NCBI GenBank assembly: GCA_001692895.1 | Contig: KV748176.1 | Span: 4,431,092-4,495,091 of the forward strand | From: Cenococcum geophilum 1.58 | Lineage: Eukaryota; Ascomycota; Dothideomycetes; Gloniales; Gloniaceae | Direction of reading: 5' to 3' | Length of the DNA: 64,000 bases | Translations under genes and position numbers: made by a program | Part shown: piece after piece, positions 6,536 through 37,136 of the stretch | Position numbering within the stretch: position 1 is the stretch's first letter | Layout: each line of letters opens with the position of its first letter | The notes under the pieces: model-generated | The model's input: only the letters and a program-made list of their open reading frames with translations | The model's database searches: none | Told to the model about the DNA's origin: nothing

Positions 6536-6584
6536 ATACTATCTACGAACCGTAGCTACGTGATATCCCCTTATGTAACCAACA
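6536..6584 (+). repeat. Copia E/J-family LTR, 3' terminal fragment
   Basis: ATACTATCTACGAACCGTAG through to GTAACCAACA is the reverse complement of the LTR ends at 22053, 24735, 32576 and 37030, so this copy lies in the opposite orientation. It ends with the canonical CCAACA at 6584 and is then followed by gypsy D integrase. It marks a copia insertion in D that was later split by gypsy A. The rest of the LTR should lie left of the window. Confidence 0.8.
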
Positions 6585-22052: not shown

Positions 22053-22243
22053 TATTGGTTACACAAGGTGATATCACGTAGCTACGGTTTGTAGATAGTA
22101 TGATAATTGTTCTTCTTTTTGATTATTGTTCTTTTGATGATTCTAAGAAAGGGTGAGGAAGGGCGAGGAGCTTAAGGCTCCTCGCTACGCTAGTGCCGCG
22201 GCAACACGTAACTATATAACCATACGTAATATTATTCCCAACA
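22053..22243 (-). repeat. Copia E 3' LTR (191 bp)
   Basis: Pairs with 24735-24925. Its interior has GAGGAGCTTAAGGCTCCTC (22169-22187), a strong hairpin, possibly linked to transcript 3'-end formation. Confidence 0.93.
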
Positions 22244-22329
22244 CTAGCAACTCTTCTTTTATAGTTGCCATCTATATATAAATACCGCTTGACTAGCGTA
22301 ACGGATATTAATCCTCCTTACTTACTATT

Positions 22330-22510
22330 ACTGTTGTAATATAAGTCTCGCTATTCCAAAATTTGCTAAAGAAATGGTGGTTAACTAAGTGGTAAATCTT
22401 AAACAAAAAAACGAGTAATATAGGTGTAAGCCTATCTAGGCTAGCGGAATCGTTAATAGCCTTAACAGTTATCTTCTGGCAGTTCTTCTTTTATGCTTAT
22501 AGCGCTATAG
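22330..22510 (-). pseudogene. Integrase C-terminal remnant in copia E
   Basis: The minus-strand frame reads LTIPLA then, one frame over, DRLTPILLVFLFK. This resembles the motif AVNNTASPDRLVPTLLVYGA of copia C (about 18040-18110) and the matching tract of copia J near 33970. It is the only pol remnant of this element, fused directly to the repeat-rich end of gag. Confidence 0.7.
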
Positions 22511-22539
22511 AAAGGCAGTAAGGTGTTAGTTTAGCTGCA

Positions 22540-23090
22540 GGTAGAAGTAGTAGAAGTTAGTTGGCTACAGGCAAAGCAGTAAGGGTCGGTCAGCTGCTAA
22601 TAAAGCAGTAAAGGTTAGTTAACTGCAGGTAGGGCAGCAAGGGTTTATTATAATAGCAATACAGTACCAGCAATAGGTTTAGGCTCGCAGGTATATTAGC
22701 GCAAGGTCTTATTAATAGGTCATAGTTCTATAGGCATATTAGTGCGGAGCTTATTAATTTGGGTAGCAGTACAGTGCTAGCGACGGGTTGTTTAGGCGGT
22801 AGTATAATGCCGGCAATAGGGTCGTATTCTAGGGAGCAAAGCTCTACCTAGTCCTATTTGGGTTGTTCTTATTAGCACAACGGTAATTAGGATCGTAGGC
22901 GTATCGGCACAATTATTTAGTTGGTAGATCGTAGGTATATAGGCATAATTAGTTGCTTAGGCTGTAGGCGTAACGGTATAGTCGTTATTAGGTTTATTCC
23001 GCAGGCGTATTAGCATAGTGTCTTATCTATTTGGGTCGCAGGGTATATTAGTTATAATAGTTATTGGGTTTATAGCTGCCGTAGATACTA
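22540..23090 (-). repeat. Degenerate ~36-bp tandem repeats in copia E
   Basis: Plus-strand phrases of the form GTAGGCGTATCGGCACAATT recur at roughly 36-37-bp spacing (for example at about 22897, 22930, 22970, 23007 and 23040), with more diverged copies to the left. A length near 36 bp keeps frame, so a 12-residue protein repeat is possible. RIP has blurred unit borders. Confidence 0.6.
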
Positions 23091-23283
23091 GCAGTTCTTT
23101 CTTTTATAGATTACCTACGTAACTATGCCGTTCCAACCGCTCCCCCCCCCTATATTACTCTCTCTTTACGGTACCCTCCATAAGAACTTCCTATCTAGAT
23201 TACGCTAGTAACCACCTTTATAGCTACCTTAGGAACTACAGAAGTCTTAGAATTCCCCTCTACACTAAATCTTCTAAAGCTTA

Positions 23284-24347
23284 TTAAATGTTTATGGAGA
23301 AGTAGAGGCTTATTACGGAGATTACTGCGAAGATTACTGCGGAGATTGCTGGTAGGACGGAGCTTAAGGCACGGGTTAAGATACGGCAGCTTAAGGCACT
23401 TAAGGTATTTAATAGCCTAAGGTTATCTATAGTAGTTACTACAGAGGTTCTTGCGGAGGTTACTGCGGAGGTTCTTACAGAGGTTCTTGCGGAGGTTCTT
23501 ACGGAGGTTCTTGCGGTGGTTCTTGCGGAGATTGTTATATTAGCGGTGCAGGTGGTGTATGGACGTGTAGCTGCTGCAGTTGCTGCGGCTGCTGTGGGGT
23601 AGCGGGGGCAGCAATTGGAGTAGCTGGCGGTGCAGCGATCGGGACAACTTGTGGTGCAGCAGTTGGAATAGCTGGTGGAATTAGCGGAGGTTTTTGCGGA
23701 GATTGCTGCGGAGATTGTGGTTGCTGCGGAGGCTGCTGCGGACATTGCTGCGGAGGTTCTTGCGGAGCTTAATGCGGAGCTTGTTGCGGAGCTTGGGGCA
23801 CGGGTTAAGATACGGCAGCCTGAAGAACTTAAGGCTGAGGAACTTGAGATATTTAATAGCCTAAGGTTGTCTGTGGTATTGCTTATGGCTGTCCGTTATT
23901 AGGATTCCCTTAAGAGTTAGACTTCTTTATAGCGCGTATTTAGTGCTTAATCTTAATCTCTTGTAAAGTTTATTCGTGCTCTTCTTCTGCGTTAAGGACT
24001 TGCTTCTAAATGTTGTCTCTAATAGCACCCCTATCTATAGGGACAAATACTCCTTTCTCCCAAAGGAAGTCTCAAAAATCCTAAATAATATTAATATTGC
24101 TAAGTGCCTAGGTGTTAGCGGTCCATCCTGCGAAATCCTCCCTAAAATATTCCCACAGCTATACGTCGGTGTAGTGTCTACTTTGGTAGAATATAATACG
24201 GTGTAGGAGAAAGCCGTTAACTTGTTTTACGGTATAAGTTATTATATTAATGGTAAATTCGTCCTAATTTTTATTAATGAGTTTCGCGTATAAAGCTACC
24301 CCTAATAGTAAGGAGTCTTCCCAGTCGTTTAAAGTAGGCGTAGCCAT
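23284..24347 (-). pseudogene. Copia E gag with Pro/Gln-rich low-complexity region
   Basis: The minus-strand ATG at 24347 opens MATPTLNDWEDSLLLGVALY, matching the gag start of copia J at 36674. The frame continues FREDFAGWTANT near 24130. From about 23770 down it becomes low complexity; the best frame gives PQEPPQQCPQQPPQQPQ and PPAIPTAAPQVV. The long open frames seen here on either strand (Ala/Thr-rich on minus, Ala/Glu-rich on plus) are shadows of this GC-rich repeat. Two similar segments (about 23368-23440 and 23799-23885) show an internal duplication. Gag would supply the particle protein. Confidence 0.65.
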
Positions 24348-24454
24348 GTTTTTAGAAGGAGGGAAGTGTTATTGGCGTAGGGATTGTCGTTTAGTACGCG
24401 TTCGTAATGTATATTTATTATTTAGTACGCGTTTATAACGTGTATTTGCGATTA

Positions 24455-24640
24455 TAGGGCTTAGGACCAGTTCTGGCCTTAAATCGCGAAGACTTGTAAA
24501 GCGTGTTGTTCTGCGTAATGGACGCAAGAATCCGTAATCTTAGAAAGGCTTAGGACCAGTTCTGGCCTTTAGATCCTTAGATTTATAGAAGAGTTCTATT
24601 TAAGGTTTAGGACCAGTTCTAACCTTAAAAGACAGCTTCC
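24455..24640 (-). repeat. Three near-palindromic leader repeats in copia E
   Basis: TTAGGACCAGTTCTGGCCTT-like phrases near 24464, 24549 and 24605. The core CCAGTTCTGG pairs as CCAG/CTGG. They lie between the 5' LTR and the gag start and recur at the same places in copia J (36756, 36845, 36900). Role unknown; packaging or dimerisation signals are possible. Confidence 0.7.
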
Positions 24641-24734
24641 TTTAGCACAAGTAGCACTAGTACAGTGGCTTATCTCTTCTTGGTGGAATACCTAGCTGTT
24701 CTATAGTATAACAGTAAAGTTAACTACTAATTAG

Positions 24735-24925
24735 TGTTGGTTAAACAAGGTAATATCACGTAGCTACGGTTCGTAGATAGTATGATGATTGTTCTTCTTT
24801 TTAATTGTTGTTCTTTTAATGATTCTAAGAAAGGGTGAGGAAGGGCGAGGAGCTTAAGGCTCCTCGCTACGCTAGTGCCGCGGCAATACGTGACTATATA
24901 ACCATACGTGATATTATTCCTAACA
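24735..24925 (-). repeat. Copia E 5' LTR (191 bp)
   Basis: TGTTGGTTAAAC..CCTAACA on the plus strand, followed by the TSD TAAAG. It holds the same GGAGCTTAAGGCTCC hairpin as its partner. Confidence 0.93.
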
Positions 24926-31560: not shown

Positions 31561-32575
31561 CTAAAGACCTAATATTAAACGCGCGCCCTCTTTTATCCTA
31601 AATAGCTTAACCCACAGATCCTTAAGGAGCTAGACTCCTAGCTAAACGAGCTAGCATTAATAAAGGAGACCTTAGACGAACTAATAGGGCTAATTAACCG
31701 CCTCTTAACTATAAACCGCACGGCTAACGCCCTAAAGGCCCTCCGCGATTAAGCTGTAAAAGGAGACCCCAATTTTAAAGCGGAGGAAGGGTTACTCCTA
31801 TATTAAGAGCGGCTTATAGTCCCTAACGTTAATAATTTACAGACTAAACTAATCCGTAAAGCTTATTGCTAAGTTTCTACGGTATACCCTAGCAAGAATA
31901 AGACCTATAAAATTATTAACTGCCGCTATTACTAGCTAAGAATAGTTATAGATATTAATTAATATATATAGAACTGCGAAGACTATAGGAGAGCTATAAT
32001 CCCACGGGATAAGACCCTAGGACTACTTAAGCTACTCCTAATACTAGAGCGCCCTTAGTAGTATATTTTTATAGACTTTTATAAACTACCTAAGGATCAT
32101 AACGGATATAATATAGTTATAGTTATAGTTAACCGCTTTAGTAAACGCCTATTTTTAATTCCCTATTATAAGAACATTAATGCTAAAGAGGCGGCCTAGC
32201 TATATATCTATTATGTTTACCAAATCTACGGACCACTAAATACTATTATATTTAATTATGGGCTATAGTTTATATCGGCCTTTTAGAATAAGTTTACCTA
32301 GATTCTAGGCATTAAGCTAAAGCTTTTTATAGCTTACTACCCCCAAATAAACGGCTAGATAAAAATTATAAATTAGTACCTAGACTAGAGGCTTAGGCCC
32401 TTTATTAACTATTTCTAGGATAACTAGTCTAAACTACTACCCTTAATAGACTATGCTTAAGCAACCCTACCTCATAACTCTACAGGGTTTGCCCTAATTT
32501 AGCTAGAAATAGAATACTTACCCTGTACAAGCTTTAACTAAAAAGGTTAAAAAAAAAACCCCTAGACTATATAAG
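31560..32575 (+). pseudogene. Gypsy F integrase, split by copia J
   Basis: The core reads YIFIDFYKLPKDHNGYNIVI (32063-32120), keeping the first Asp. IIFNYGL (about 32245) is the second catalytic region with Asp changed to Asn. AYYPQINGQIKIINQYLDQ (32335-32390) has Lys where the catalytic Glu is expected. The frame then goes LIDYAQATLPHNSTGFA and is cut at 32575 by copia J, resuming at 37137. Confidence 0.85.
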
Positions 32576-32677
32576 TGTTGGTTACACAAGGGGATATCAC
32601 GTAGCTACGGTTCGTAGATAGTATGATGATTATTAAATCAAGCTTTTCCTTTGGCTTTGCCATAAGATTTGCCTTCA
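32576..32677 (-). repeat. Copia J 3' LTR, chimeric (102 bp)
   Basis: Bases 32576-32634 equal the end of the copia E LTR; 32635-32677 encode KANLMAKPKEKLD on the minus strand, the same codons as the adjoining RT frame. On the minus strand the junction reads GAAGAAGATGAACTAG then TGAAGG, with a purine-rich run just before the new LTR start. Confidence 0.87.
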
Positions 32678-33420
32678 CTAGTTCATCTTCTTCAAGAGCT
32701 GAGAATCGGTCGTCTCCTAAAATAATTGTATCATCAGTTTGCATGCCGACGATTCCGAATGGAGTTCCCGTGGTTGTGATGAGGAAGCATGGGTCGAATG
32801 TAGAAGTAGTCATCAAAAGCTTCTCTTTGTGGTGCTTGCTGTAGGTAGCCCACCAATGAGTTCCTGCCTCTGCGATTCCATATAATGGCTTAAGCACAAC
32901 CATGATTGTATCTTCGGGATATTGGTGGCGAATTTGCTCTGGAAGGTGTGCCAATATTAAGCGCTGAAGGTGTGTCTCTGATTGGGTGTAGGCCTAGGTA
33001 ATATCTCGCAAATAGACCGCCATTCCATTCTTTATTAAGGAGGGAGCTAATGCAACAATAACTCGTTGACTAGCTCGTTAAATCGTAGGAAATTGCATAA
33101 GAATTATCTCCTTACCATTGTTGTTATAACCTTAGATAATAAGCCTTAATTTCTCGAATGGGGCATCAGTAGCTTTACCTTTAATCTTATTAACCATTCT
33201 TAAATTAAAGATGCGAACTTTATTAAACTTAGTAGGGTTATACTTCTTAAATTTAAAAACTCCTCTTGTAATAAGACCATCGATCTCCTACTTATTAGAT
33301 GCTTAGAAAGGAGCTCCTAGAGTTATAATACAACCTTCCTTTTAGAGCTATTTTGCGAGTTCAAAGTCAGCCTTCTCCTTAGCTGTCATAAAGGCCATTA
33401 ATAACTTAACTCCATTCTTA
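32678..33420 (-). pseudogene. Copia J reverse transcriptase, truncated, lightly mutated in part
   Basis: From high to low coordinates: GVFKFKKYNPTKFNKVRIFN, LRMVNKIKGKATDAPFEK, YNNNGKEIILMQFPTI, RASQRVIVALAPSLI (about 33290-33050), then an unbroken tract with LAHLPEQIRHQYPEDTIMV, LKPLYGIAEAGTHWWATYS and GMQTDDTIILGDDRFSALEE. The catalytic motif is QTDD, both Asp intact. The tract 32990-32678 has no stop and many CpA sites, unlike the rest of the element. The C-terminal RT part and RNase H are absent; the frame enters the LTR. Confidence 0.88.
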
Positions 33421-34720
33421 ATGGCAGCAATAAATTGTTCTTTAAAATTAATAAGATGTTGGCGATTTCGTGATCCCTTCGGGCGACCTCTACCGCGTTA
33501 TAGTTATGGCGCATCTACTACAATTATATTGGGATTGTAGTCGCCTTCTAAAGTATATTAATCGTAGTTCTCTTCTAAAGTATCTTCTAGAGCATCCTAT
33601 AAAGGCTTAGAATTGTTATCTTTATAGTAAGGCTTAATAACAGTTAAACGGAATTAAGTAGGTCCGTAAGGCATCTAAATAGTATAAGTTTAACCATTAA
33701 TTGCAATAAGTTGGTGTAGGCCTAACTATCCTCCCTTTTTACGCTATACGCGTACCTTAGACTAGAGTAGTAGATTAAGCGTAGTTAAGGTATTTAGGCC
33801 ATTTCTTATTCCTAATACGTCGTTAACCTAGCGTATAGCGTAGAGATATCGCACCTCCTTTATTACCTTATAAATAGCCTTAGCTCGTTATATAATAGAG
33901 GGAGATAGTAAAGAATCGTTAGTTATTTAAGGGTAGGCGCTAAAGACTAGCAATATAGGTATAAGTCTATCCGGGCCAGCGGAATTGTTAATAGCTTTAA
34001 CAGCTATTTACAAGGTAAGTTCTTCGCTAGCATCCTTTAGTTCTAAAGAGATAATCTTATATACGCGGCGTAATAGCGTGTAATATCGTTCTACTTTTCT
34101 AATACTATTATATGCCTTAATAGGGACTTCCTTAACCTCAATTGCTATTACCTTTATTTATTATCGGAACTCTATAGATAAGAAGTTCTTTCCTACGTTA
34201 TAGACAATTTAATTAGGGGGTCCTAGGTAGACATTAATCTAGTATAACTAAAGGGTATCCTATACGTTCCTAGCTAATATATCCTTTAAAAATCGTGCGG
34301 CTTAGAAGGAGGTTAAGAAGTTAATAACTTAGAGTACTAGCTTGCCGCTAAGGTATATAACGTCGACAATAATACAGAAGTTAAAGTTGTAGTTATCTTT
34401 AAGGGTAAACTTAAATCGGCCAGGGGACCTCTGGTTTATTTAGCAGTGGTAGCAGTATTTTATAAGATGCTTAATTACCTTAACCTCGACTTTATAGCCT
34501 GCTTACTAAAGAACCCTAAGTAATTAGTAAACTAATAGGTAACTAAAATGACGGTATAGTTGGCGTAACTCTAACTTAGTTAAATGGCTCTAAGCAACAC
34601 TCTTTTCTAGTTATTAAAGGAGTAGCTAAGGGTAACCCCACTTACGTATAATAGGCACCCGATTATCTCCCTACACGAGCATATTCTTAAGGTTATTAAG
34701 CTTAACACCTAGTTTATCTA
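33421..34720 (-). pseudogene. Copia J integrase and integrase-RT linker
   Basis: Minus strand. Around 34200 the frame reads NVGKNFLSIEFR, the second catalytic region of copia integrase (compare HNAGRNFISKEF in copia C). Near 33970 is a tract matching DRLVPTLLV of copia C. The linker has a basic RGRGRPKGSRNRQHL (about 33500-33455). Moderately RIP-mutated. Confidence 0.75.
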
Positions 34721-34974
34721 TATCTCTAATACAAAATAAAAACGGGGTATTTATAGAAATAACGTAAAAAGTAATATACCCTAAGGGGGTTTAAACCCTA
34801 ATTATGCCGAGAGAAATTATAGTACCTTTGCTAAAATAAATCGTATATTGGCCTACCGTTAAATAGTTAATCTAAACAGAGCTATTAAGCTGCTAAAGGG
34901 CTTAAACTTAAGGTTCTCCTGCTATAGATACTCCTACAGCTTTAGTATCCGGCATAATACTATAGAAGACGTTN

Positions 34975-36674
34975 GCNNAGTATCTNTTNTTAAAGGANAA
35001 CGNNGANCTCTCCTTTAGCTTATTAAAGATATCTAACTTCGTAATAAAATAGAGCGTAGATTGGTCATTAAGAACAGCGACGGTTTATATACTATTTACC
35101 TTACTATACTTAGTAAAGTATTGGTTAGATAAGTAGTCCTTAATTTCTATATCCATAAGGAGCTGTTTAGTCTCATTAACCTTACCCTTAAGGTTTTCTA
35201 CGCCTTCGTATTAAACCAGGAAGCTTTAAAAGTAGGCCGCAGTAACCTTATAATTTTTAACATTTCTTATACTTTAACGGAACTTATTATATACCTCTTT
35301 TCGCTTATTAAGGGAGTGTCTAGTTAACTAGCAATTTGGCTTCTTACAAACGTAGCACTTCTTTTAGTAATTACTTTAAAATAAACCTCCACCGGGACCT
35401 CTATGGTTGCCTTATAGTTAATATTAATCGTACCCTCTTCCGTATTCCCTACCGCGGCCACTATATATTTAATCAGTCCAGTTATAATCGTATTAGTCAG
35501 GAATACTTAGTTAGGTAGGGTTTTCGGTATAAAACTATTAAGATTCTTATATTCGCATTATAGTACCTATAGCGGAGCGTAGCTTAGCATATACTCCTTT
35601 AAACGTATCTATAGGTTTATATAGCGCCAAGTTACACTTAAGAACGCTATGGTATGCTAAGATAACCTAGTCCCTTAGGCTGTTCTTATTTTAGTAAGTT
35701 TTAGTAAGGCCACGTTAGATTTTCTAGAGTTTATTAAAGAGTAGTTAAAGGCACTCTAAATAAGTCTTTATTAGGTTAGAAGCAATAACTCTCTAAAACA
35801 TAGTCTCCCGCCATTTAGATATATAAAGTTGGCGATTCTTATTAGTCTTAAAGTGGGCTCTAGTAAGCTAAAGCATTGTATTAAAGTTATAGTTTTTACC
35901 CGCAATATAGTTGTAATAGAATGTTACCGCCCGTCCCTTTAATATAATAGAGAAAGCGTAATAGTACTAGTGGCGTTAAATTTTAACCTTATTATAACAG
36001 TTATAAAAGACCTATAGTTTTGCTCCGAGTATNTTATANAGTTNTCCTNTAAACTTCTTCTNTTNGTCCNAATATACCTTTATTAGATTNGTAACTTNTT
36101 ATAGTAAAGGCTTACCGGTTAGCTAGAGTGGAGGAGGTAAAGGCGGAGTAACTCTAAGTGGGAGAGCACCTCTAGGTAGGAGAGCAGCTTTAGGTGGGGG
36201 GTTAGTGTTCTGGGGGTTTTAATATAAATTAAAGTTGCCTTCCAAAGAATATGGGTTGTTTTTAGGTTTCTATAGTTAACGTATAATTTTAGCTTCCGTC
36301 CATATTAGTTCTTCTATACTAGTAATAACGGCCTAAATATTGCTAGCAATTAGGTTACCATTCTTAGCAATGTATACCCTATTCCTATAGAGAAAGTCTT
36401 AAAAGTCCTAAATAATATTAACGTTGCCAAGTACCTAGGTATTAGCAGTCCATCCTATAAAATCCTCCCTAAAATACTCCCATAGTTGTAAATCGGCGTA
36501 GCATCTATTTCGGTAGAATATAATATAGTATAGGAGAAAGCCGTTAACTTATTTTACGGTATAAGTTGTTATATTAAAGGCGAATTCGTCCCAATCTTCA
36601 TTAATAAGTTTCGCGTACTTAGCTACCCCTAGTGGTAAGGAGTCTTTCTAGTTATTTAAAGTAGGCGTAGCCAT
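34975..36674 (-). pseudogene. Copia J gag
   Basis: The minus-strand ATG at 36674 opens MATPTLNN then KDSLPLGVAKYAKLINEDWD, the same start as copia E. Further on a knuckle KKCYVCKKPNC and TRHSLNKRKEVYNKFR lies at 35360-35290. Scattered N (34974-35008 and 36033-36090) mark unresolved consensus. Gag would form the particle; the cysteine knuckle would bind RNA. Confidence 0.77.
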
Positions 36675-37029
36675 GTTTTTAGAGGGAGGGAAGTGTTATT
36701 AGTGTAGGGATTGTCGTTTGGTACGCGTTTAGACGTATATTTGCGATTATAGGGCTTAGGACCAGTTCTGGCCTTAAATCGCGAAGACTTATAAAGCGTG
36801 TTATTCTGCGTAATAGACGCAAGAATCCATAATCTTAGAAAGGCTCAGGACCAGTTCTAGCCTTTAGATCCTTAGATTTATAGAAGAGTTCTATTTAAGG
36901 TTTAGGACCAGTTCTAACCTTAAAAAACAGCTTCCTTTAGCATAAGTAGCACTGGTACAGTGGCTCGTCTCTTCTTAGTGGAATACCTTACTGTTTTGTG
37001 GTATAACAGTGAAGTTAACCACTGATTAG
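36675..37029 (-). other. Copia J leader with three near-palindromic repeats
   Basis: Leader between the 5' LTR and gag; phrases around GGACCAGTTCTGGCC recur at about 36756, 36845 and 36900, colinear with copia E. No open frame of note. Confidence 0.7.
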
Positions 37030-37131
37030 TGTTGGTTACACAAGGGGATATCACGTAGCTACGGTTCGTAGATAGTATGATAATTGTTAAATCAAGCTTT
37101 TCCTTTGGCTTTGCCATAAGATTTGCCTTCA
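37030..37131 (-). repeat. Copia J 5' LTR, chimeric (102 bp)
   Basis: Matches 32576-32677 across the fused junction except for two RIP-type transitions. Followed by the TSD ATAAG. Confidence 0.87.
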
Positions 37132-37136
37132 ATAAG

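What the first reader, a model, noticed from the sequence alone, without database searches (positions are those of the whole stretch)
32576..37131. Copia J moved with new LTRs made partly from its own RT gene
Seen: both LTRs (102 bp) carry the same fusion of 59 bp of old LTR end with 43 bp of RT codons, and the element has TG..CA ends and a perfect ATAAG TSD in the gypsy F frame. On the coding strand GAAGAAGATGAACTAG precedes the new TGAAGG end; copia E has AAAAGAAGAG..CTAG before its normal TGTTGG end. Inferred: a deletion fused RT to the LTR, then a cryptic polypurine tract in RT primed plus-strand synthesis and defined a new LTR start, replacing the usual start of U3.
Basis: partly seen in the sequence, partly recalled or inferred. 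Interest (0 to 1): 0.88.

Follow-up and report, generated by a model that had tools for sequence, protein, structure and literature searches.

The report
Retrotransposon with ends from its RT gene
A fungal jumping element was copied with new terminal repeats stitched from the tail of its old repeat and a piece of its own reverse-transcriptase gene, and a second element elsewhere in the genome shows nearly the same accident, which exposes normally hidden signals of its replication.

Summary
Confirmed. J (32576-37131, minus strand) is a clean 4.56-kb insertion with 102-bp LTRs differing at 2 sites, TG..CA ends and an ATAAG duplication. Each LTR is 59 bp of an ordinary LTR tail plus 43 bp of reverse-transcriptase (RT) codons; 1.34-1.38 kb of ordinary copies is missing. 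Pattern searches found four fused junctions in the 177-Mb genome: J's two and two in one C5 element with its own 5-bp duplication; no one-ended copy among them. The new start follows a polypurine-like site (AAGAAGA-N4-CTAG|TG) spaced like the true one; it is the best or joint best internal match to the true site in 6 of 6 unfused copies scanned, most held only in part. The family fits fungal GalEa Copia, probably in Cenococcum geophilum (inferred). RIP-filtered comparisons place J with unfused copies, not with C5 (p-AU 0.016-0.054; rows mostly chosen for likeness to J), so two events are likelier than one. Best reading: a reverse-transcriptase jump from the LTR tail to an AAC site in RT, rescued by the cryptic polypurine site. 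A prior genomic deletion remains possible. New variant of a known kind.

The parts
32571..32575 (.). Target-site duplication ATAAG, left copy
   Evidence: empty site in 40 of 40 scored host-repeat places
32576..32677 (-). Left LTR (3' LTR of the element, which reads on the minus strand), 102 bp
   Evidence: 98% to the right LTR
32576..32634 (-). 59-bp tail of the ordinary family LTR (probably R-U5, inferred)
   Evidence: 100% to L005 LTR over J 1-60; a 31-base pattern from the tail occurs 1068 times in the genome
32629..32635 (-). Junction zone shared by LTR and RT (AAC-type repeat; microhomology)
   Evidence: LTR match ends at J 60 and RT match begins at J 54
32635..32677 (-). 43 bp of RT codons now forming the start of the LTR (in the place of U3)
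   Evidence: open frame through QTDD..KPKEKLDL into the LTR
32678..32692 (-). Cryptic polypurine-like site AAGAAGATGAACTAG directly before the new LTR start
32678..33458 (-). Remaining RT region (span of the 330-aa L057 frame, mapped by alignment), cut about 32 residues after the QTDD motif
   Evidence: RVT_2 above cut-off in L057 (36.1 bits), below it in J's open piece (15.3 bits)
37021..37029 (-). CHSeq1-like 9-mer (CTAATCAGT on the coding strand) directly after the 5' LTR, where a primer-binding site would be expected
   Evidence: compared with PMC5445492 section 10
37030..37131 (-). Right LTR (5' LTR of the element), 102 bp, same fusion
37132..37136 (.). Target-site duplication ATAAG, right copy
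22053..24925 (-). Copia E, used as reference: ordinary 191-bp LTRs, TAAAG duplications, ordinary polypurine site

Best explanation
J is a non-autonomous, trans-mobilised copy of a fungal GalEa-type Copia element. During its reverse transcription the minus-strand cDNA that had copied the LTR tail (R-U5) ended in an AAC-type repeat and, instead of continuing through the normal 3' LTR, annealed to the like repeat in the RT coding region. This skipped the rest of RT, RNase H, the true polypurine tract and U3. With the true tract gone, plus-strand synthesis began at the best polypurine-like site left, in RT 43 nt upstream of the jump, so the cDNA received two LTRs of 43 bp RT plus 59 bp old LTR and integrated normally. 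The C5 element most likely arose by a second, separate jump at the same place. Shown: fused LTR pair, target duplications, no one-ended copy among the junctions found, position of the new start relative to the polypurine-like site. Inferred: that the jump happened in reverse transcription, that the junction lies at or near the 5' end of R, mobilisation in trans, independence of the two events.
For: Both LTRs of both elements carry the fusion, with different 5-bp duplications: ATAAG for J, GTATT/ATATT for C5, whose empty site is J 2867-2871. Four junctions found in the genome, in these two elements. Of 84 genome matches to the end of the RT piece not followed by C, 81 continue TTAG/TTAA (4 of them read) and one GTAG, as ordinary RT; two are the 5' LTRs of J and C5. 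True site AAAAGAAGAGTTGCTAG|TG and cryptic site GAAGAAGATGAACTAG|TG share AAGAAGA-N4-CTAG|TG. In a 19-mer scan the cryptic site is the sole best internal match besides the true site in 5 of 6 unfused copies and joint best in the sixth (C92 held whole, the others in part). The junction lies in an AAC-type repeat present on both sides, of different length in J and C5. RIP-filtered trees put J with unfused copies: J+C5 as one clade in 0% of 200 bootstrap trees, p-AU 0.046, 0.054 and 0.016. In J 60-480 unfused L058 differs from J by 6 non-RIP changes, C5 by 22 (tied 30th-34th of 34 rows).
Against: The transcription start is unknown, so the place of R is a guess. The AAC-type motif is not unique inside the element, so microhomology alone does not explain the choice of site. 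The 19-mer similarity is modest: in Markov resamples a best match as good appears in 1% for the C101 copy but in 10-69% for four others, and the copies are related; the zero-mismatch core pattern was chosen after seeing the site. The AU tests are marginal, most rows were chosen for likeness to J, and the family recombines, so one origin followed by exchange of flanking RT is not excluded. Mobilisation in trans is inferred only from the missing domains.
Confidence: 0.62

Rival explanations
1. A deletion in a genomic copy, between the AAC-type repeats, first fused RT to the 3' LTR tail. This parent kept an ordinary 5' LTR and promoter; its RNA was then reverse transcribed with the cryptic polypurine site.
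For: Gives the same final product; short repeats at the junction also favour deletion in DNA; the same cryptic-site evidence applies.
Against: No one-ended parent among the four junctions found. A parent with a working promoter could make many daughters, yet each fusion was found once. Two separate deletions at the same place would be needed if J and C5 are independent.
Confidence: 0.25
2. One fusion, later copies: J and C5 descend from one fused element; the AAC-repeat length changed by slippage and the flanking RT was exchanged by template switching.
For: Same junction within an AAC-type repeat and exactly the same new LTR start; the family looks recombining, and J itself looks mosaic.
Against: Junction-adjacent RT of J is closest to unfused L058, with C5 tied 30th-34th of 34 rows; J+C5 rejected or nearly so in three alignments; no further fused copies found; a U3 made of RT codons is unlikely to hold a promoter (not tested).
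Confidence: 0.22
3. The 102-bp repeats are a tandem duplication, later gene conversion or assembly error.
For: J contains two clusters of N bases.
Against: Perfect target duplication and empty site, second locus on another contig with the same anatomy nested in a different target, and the N clusters lie far from the junctions.
Confidence: 0.01

Closest known systems
Fungal GalEa clade of Ty1/Copia (PMC5445492; section 10 and passages of other sections seen)
   Same: QTDD and KSRLVI RT motifs, CHSeq1-type 9-mer directly after the LTR, 5-bp duplication, TG..CA ends, very high abundance reported there in a 177-Mb genome
   Different: J's LTRs are 102 bp (range given there 138-311 bp apart from one outlier), start TGA, contain RT codons, and J lacks the rest of RT and RNase H
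HIV-1 proviruses with asymmetric LTRs (PMC9278108; passages seen)
   Same: Explained there by reverse transcriptase skipping part of the template during minus-strand synthesis
   Different: There one LTR is intact and the other deleted; here plus-strand synthesis starts at a new site, so both LTRs carry the change
Nonhomologous minus-strand DNA transfer in retroviruses (Yin et al. 1997; seen only as a line in the reference list of PMC12115494; content recalled)
   Same: Strong-stop cDNA lands outside R, helped by short matches
   Different: Laboratory vectors; no natural LTR rebuilt from RT with a cryptic polypurine site, as far as recalled

Membership tests
Fungal GalEa Copia | QTDD motif in RT | tested here: met
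   J frame reads GMQTDDTIILGDD; family copy L057 the same; 84 of the 120 listed relatives have QTDD
Fungal GalEa Copia | KSRLVI motif in RT | tested here: met
   Met in family copy L057 and in 60 of 120 listed relatives; J itself reads KLRLII
Fungal GalEa Copia | CHSeq1 (CTGATCAGT/CTAATTAGT) directly after the 5' LTR | tested here: met
   CTAATTAGT in 5 of 7 elements checked; one-base variants CTAATCAGT in J and CTGATTAGT in C5
Fungal GalEa Copia | CHSeq2, inverse complement 12-41 bp downstream | tested here: inconclusive
   A simple pattern found none in 7 of 7 elements; a fold of the J 5' end shows other stems
Fungal GalEa Copia | 5-bp target-site duplication and TG..CA ends | tested here: met
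   ATAAG for J, GTATT/ATATT for C5
Fungal GalEa Copia | LTR of 138-311 bp starting TGT | tested here: not met
   J: 102 bp, starts TGA; ordinary member E: 191 bp, starts TGT. The departure is the finding itself, so the claim is that J derives from the family
Fungal GalEa Copia | No tRNA-type primer-binding site | not tested
   No comparison with the tRNAs of this genome was made
Fungal GalEa Copia | Single large ORF | not tested
Autonomous LTR retrotransposon | Complete RT and RNase H | tested here: not met
   RT ends about 32 residues after QTDD; the stretch that holds the rest of RT, the RNase H region, the true polypurine site and U3 in L005 is absent. RNase H itself gave no Pfam match even in L057; its place is inferred from the gene order of Copia

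The most novel reading that the evidence does not exclude
Fungal GalEa elements carry a latent second plus-strand start inside RT, built into a conserved acidic motif after QTDD whose codons are purine-rich; it is silent until the true polypurine tract is lost. Together with an AAC repeat at the 5' end of R it makes a recurrent route by which first-strand transfer goes astray and yields elements with U3-less, RT-derived LTRs. The two natural accidents would then mark the plus-strand start and the start of R in a clade whose priming is unexplained.
Probability: 0.3. Interest if true: 0.7.

Novelty: new variant of a known kind. Interest (0 to 1): 0.55.

Why it matters
Abnormal strand transfer is known from retroviruses, but an integrated element whose two LTRs were rebuilt from its own RT gene, apparently twice in one genome, is an unusually clean natural record of where plus-strand synthesis can start and how far the first-strand template reaches. 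Fungal GalEa elements have no recognised primer-binding site and a very variable polypurine signal (PMC5445492), so such accidents give mapped points that can be tested in RNA and cDNA. They also show a route to non-autonomous elements that LTR-based annotation could misread.

Tried and rejected
Considered and rejected: tandem duplication or assembly error. C111:149514, a 3-mismatch hit, is ordinary RT. The idea that AACAACA is unique to the RT site failed: it and its C/T variants occur at several places. The zero-mismatch core pattern (none in 60 Markov resamples) was built after seeing the site and is not counted as a test. In one search the J row was cut 2 bases short of the site, so J's rank is taken (joint best, 3 sites at 6 mismatches). 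L057 and L092 are the same genomic copy (C101) and are counted once. In L017 (C19) two other hits, one of them better than the cryptic site, lie outside the element and were set aside; C19 was not resampled.

Rows and limits of the trees: of the 34 rows compared with J, most are best matches to J and eight are best matches to C5; one copy (C72) is in twice, as L067 and L087. L018 was left out whole, although its second piece was usable (4 transversions and 18 non-RIP transitions from J). L009 and L015 (host copy of C5) were left out as too short. The four full copies were also picked as near J. LTR conservation is partly built in by the search pattern. No promoter or transcript start could be mapped.

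Papers: no paper describing LTRs rebuilt from RT was found in the listings of searches; the library lacks most subscription journals. PMC2041998 (passages) concerns tRNA mispriming and was not used.
Full report
What is there. J occupies 32576-37131 and reads on the minus strand. Its two 102-bp ends match at 98%, differing at 2 sites, both A/G after T, as repeat-induced point mutation (RIP) would leave them. ATAAG flanks it on both sides. The flanks joined with one ATAAG are spanned by 40 of 40 scored places, of 993 candidates, so J is a clean insertion. Sub-threshold Pfam matches fit a Ty3/gypsy integrase as host.

The fusion. In the two ordinary copies measured the LTR is 191 bp (E) and about 194 bp (L005, counted by eye). 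J keeps the last 59 bp and continues with 43 bp of RT codons. J 1-60 matches the LTR and J 54 onward matches RT, so about 7 bases are shared. Between the two matches ordinary copies hold about 1.34 kb (L005) to 1.38 kb (L088): the rest of RT, the RNase H region (placed by Copia gene order; no Pfam match), the true polypurine site and U3. The J frame runs through QTDD and KPKEKLDL straight into the LTR. In family copy L057 the corresponding frame is 330 residues with an RVT_2 match at residues 86-257; J's own open piece matches RVT_2 only below the cut-off (15.3 bits).

How common. A 125-bp query gave matches across the junction only in J and in one element on contig C5, and ranked them first (40 of 2191 candidates scored). 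The exact junction pattern matched 4 places, two in J and two on C5, against 0 for the reversed control. Two patterns allowing 3 mismatches added one place, which is ordinary RT. A 31-base pattern of the LTR tail occurs 1068 times with at most 1 mismatch, so two fused elements are rare. These counts miss copies whose junction lies elsewhere or is strongly mutated; the broader search did not complete.

The C5 element. It spans C5:4051043-4061578 on the minus strand; its two pieces are 86-87% identical to J. Both its LTRs are fused. It sits inside another copy of the family, with GTATT on one side and ATATT on the other; J 2867-2871 (GTATT) is the matching empty site. An insertion of about 5.9 kb with an 8-bp duplication GTTTATAA splits it.

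The new start. Ordinary copies end their internal part with AAAAGAAGAGTTGCTAG or close variants before TG. J has CTTGAAGAAGATGAACTAG before TGAAGG, C5 has CTTGAAGAAGATGAGCTAG before TAAAGG. The purine run and the CTAG|TG step have the same spacing. Scanning with the 19-mer AAAAGAAGAGTTGCYAGTG and setting the true site aside, the RT site is the sole best internal match in 5 of 6 unfused copies (C35, C13, C14, C101, C19) and joint best in C92; only C92 was held whole, C101 in two overlapping pieces, and C35, C13 and C14 without the part downstream of RT. In J it is joint best with two other sites. Markov resamples reach the observed best in 1% (C101), 10%, 13%, 16% and 69% (C19 not resampled), so single copies are mostly not significant, and the copies are related. 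Of 84 genome matches to the end of the RT piece not followed by C, 82 continue as ordinary RT and 2 are the 5' LTRs of J and C5. In the 30 relatives printed (of 91 with such a motif, of 120) the residues after QTDD are mostly acidic (LEEDEL and the like), which would keep the codons purine-rich; that is an inference.

One event or two. RIP blurs distances, so RIP-capable columns were masked or RIP-type changes left out. In the RT tree (35 rows, 486 of 666 columns) J groups with unfused L058 (92/88) and then L070 (80/91); J+C5 as one clade appears in 0% of 200 bootstrap trees, p-AU 0.046. For two larger blocks (6 rows each) p-AU is 0.054 and 0.016; in the same call J+L088 alone is also rejected as a pair (0.016, 0.025), because L088 and L090 pair with each other. 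In J 60-480 L058 has 6 non-RIP differences and C5 22, tied 30th-34th of 34. Most rows were taken because they resemble J, which worsens C5's rank; that an unfused copy lies closer to J than C5 does is not affected. The AAC-type repeat at the junction has one unit in J and three in C5, counting C/T as variants. Ordinary LTRs vary in just this repeat, so slippage is possible. Two events are likelier than one, but recombination in the family keeps one event possible.

Mechanism. All three routes (misplaced first strand transfer, a later skip in minus-strand synthesis, or a genomic deletion followed by ordinary reverse transcription) give the same product, and all need the new polypurine start. 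The two routes inside reverse transcription need no one-ended parent, and none was found among the junctions. They also explain why each fusion was found once, since 43 bp of RT codons are unlikely to hold a promoter (not tested). A jump elsewhere might leave no good polypurine site close by; the AAC site 43 nt downstream of the best cryptic site is therefore a likely place for survivors. This is inference. Upstream of the junction ordinary LTRs carry a pyrimidine-rich stretch and then an A-rich one, compatible with a transcription start near the junction, but no start was mapped.

Mosaic J. At RIP-type variable sites J is in the mutated state at 0.08 and 0.15 in J 60-560, and 0.25-0.67 beyond, while the other rows show 0.25-1.0 throughout. 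Its closeness to L058 also fades after about J 480. J may join a fresh RT-LTR end to an older, RIP-marked body, or RIP may simply have stopped there.

Family and organism. The motifs and the 9-mer after the LTR fit fungal GalEa elements; CHSeq2 was not recognised. PMC5445492 gives 177.57 Mb and 10.4% GalEa for Cenococcum geophilum (passages); the genome here has 177.19 Mb. The organism is thus inferred, not shown. The relatives named in the protein search are fungal (Talaromyces, Elaphomyces, Podosphaera and others; best 120 of 455 listed, most without a name).

Verdict. The cryptic polypurine start is supported. The order of events and the number of origins remain open, with a jump in reverse transcription, twice, as the best reading.

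Noticed in passing
32635-33135 against 33136-37020: J has an almost RIP-free RT end (0.08-0.15 mutated at RIP-type sites) and a RIP-marked body; the nearest relative also changes near J 480-560, as if two templates were joined.
   Followed up: partly
22053-24925: Copia E is a 2.87-kb relative, probably non-autonomous: ordinary LTRs and TAAAG duplications, about 0.7 kb at the 5' end shared with J, and a middle with GCGGAGGTT-like repeats that matches J only in one 66-bp stretch.
   Followed up: partly
L009/L010 (C5:4054011-4059958): The C5 fused element carries an inner insertion of about 5.9 kb with 8-bp duplication GTTTATAA, as DNA transposons of the hAT type make (family recalled).
   Followed up: no
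22053-22243 and other LTRs (L021-L050): Many ordinary LTRs share a palindrome GAGGAACCTTAAGTTCCTC or GAGGAGCCTTAAGCTCCTC, whose arms change together, just before a pyrimidine-rich stretch.
   Followed up: no
34974-35007 and 36033-36099: Two clusters of scattered N bases inside J, far from the junctions.
   Followed up: no
6536-6584: A further piece of the same LTR tail on the minus strand, without the J fusion.
   Followed up: no
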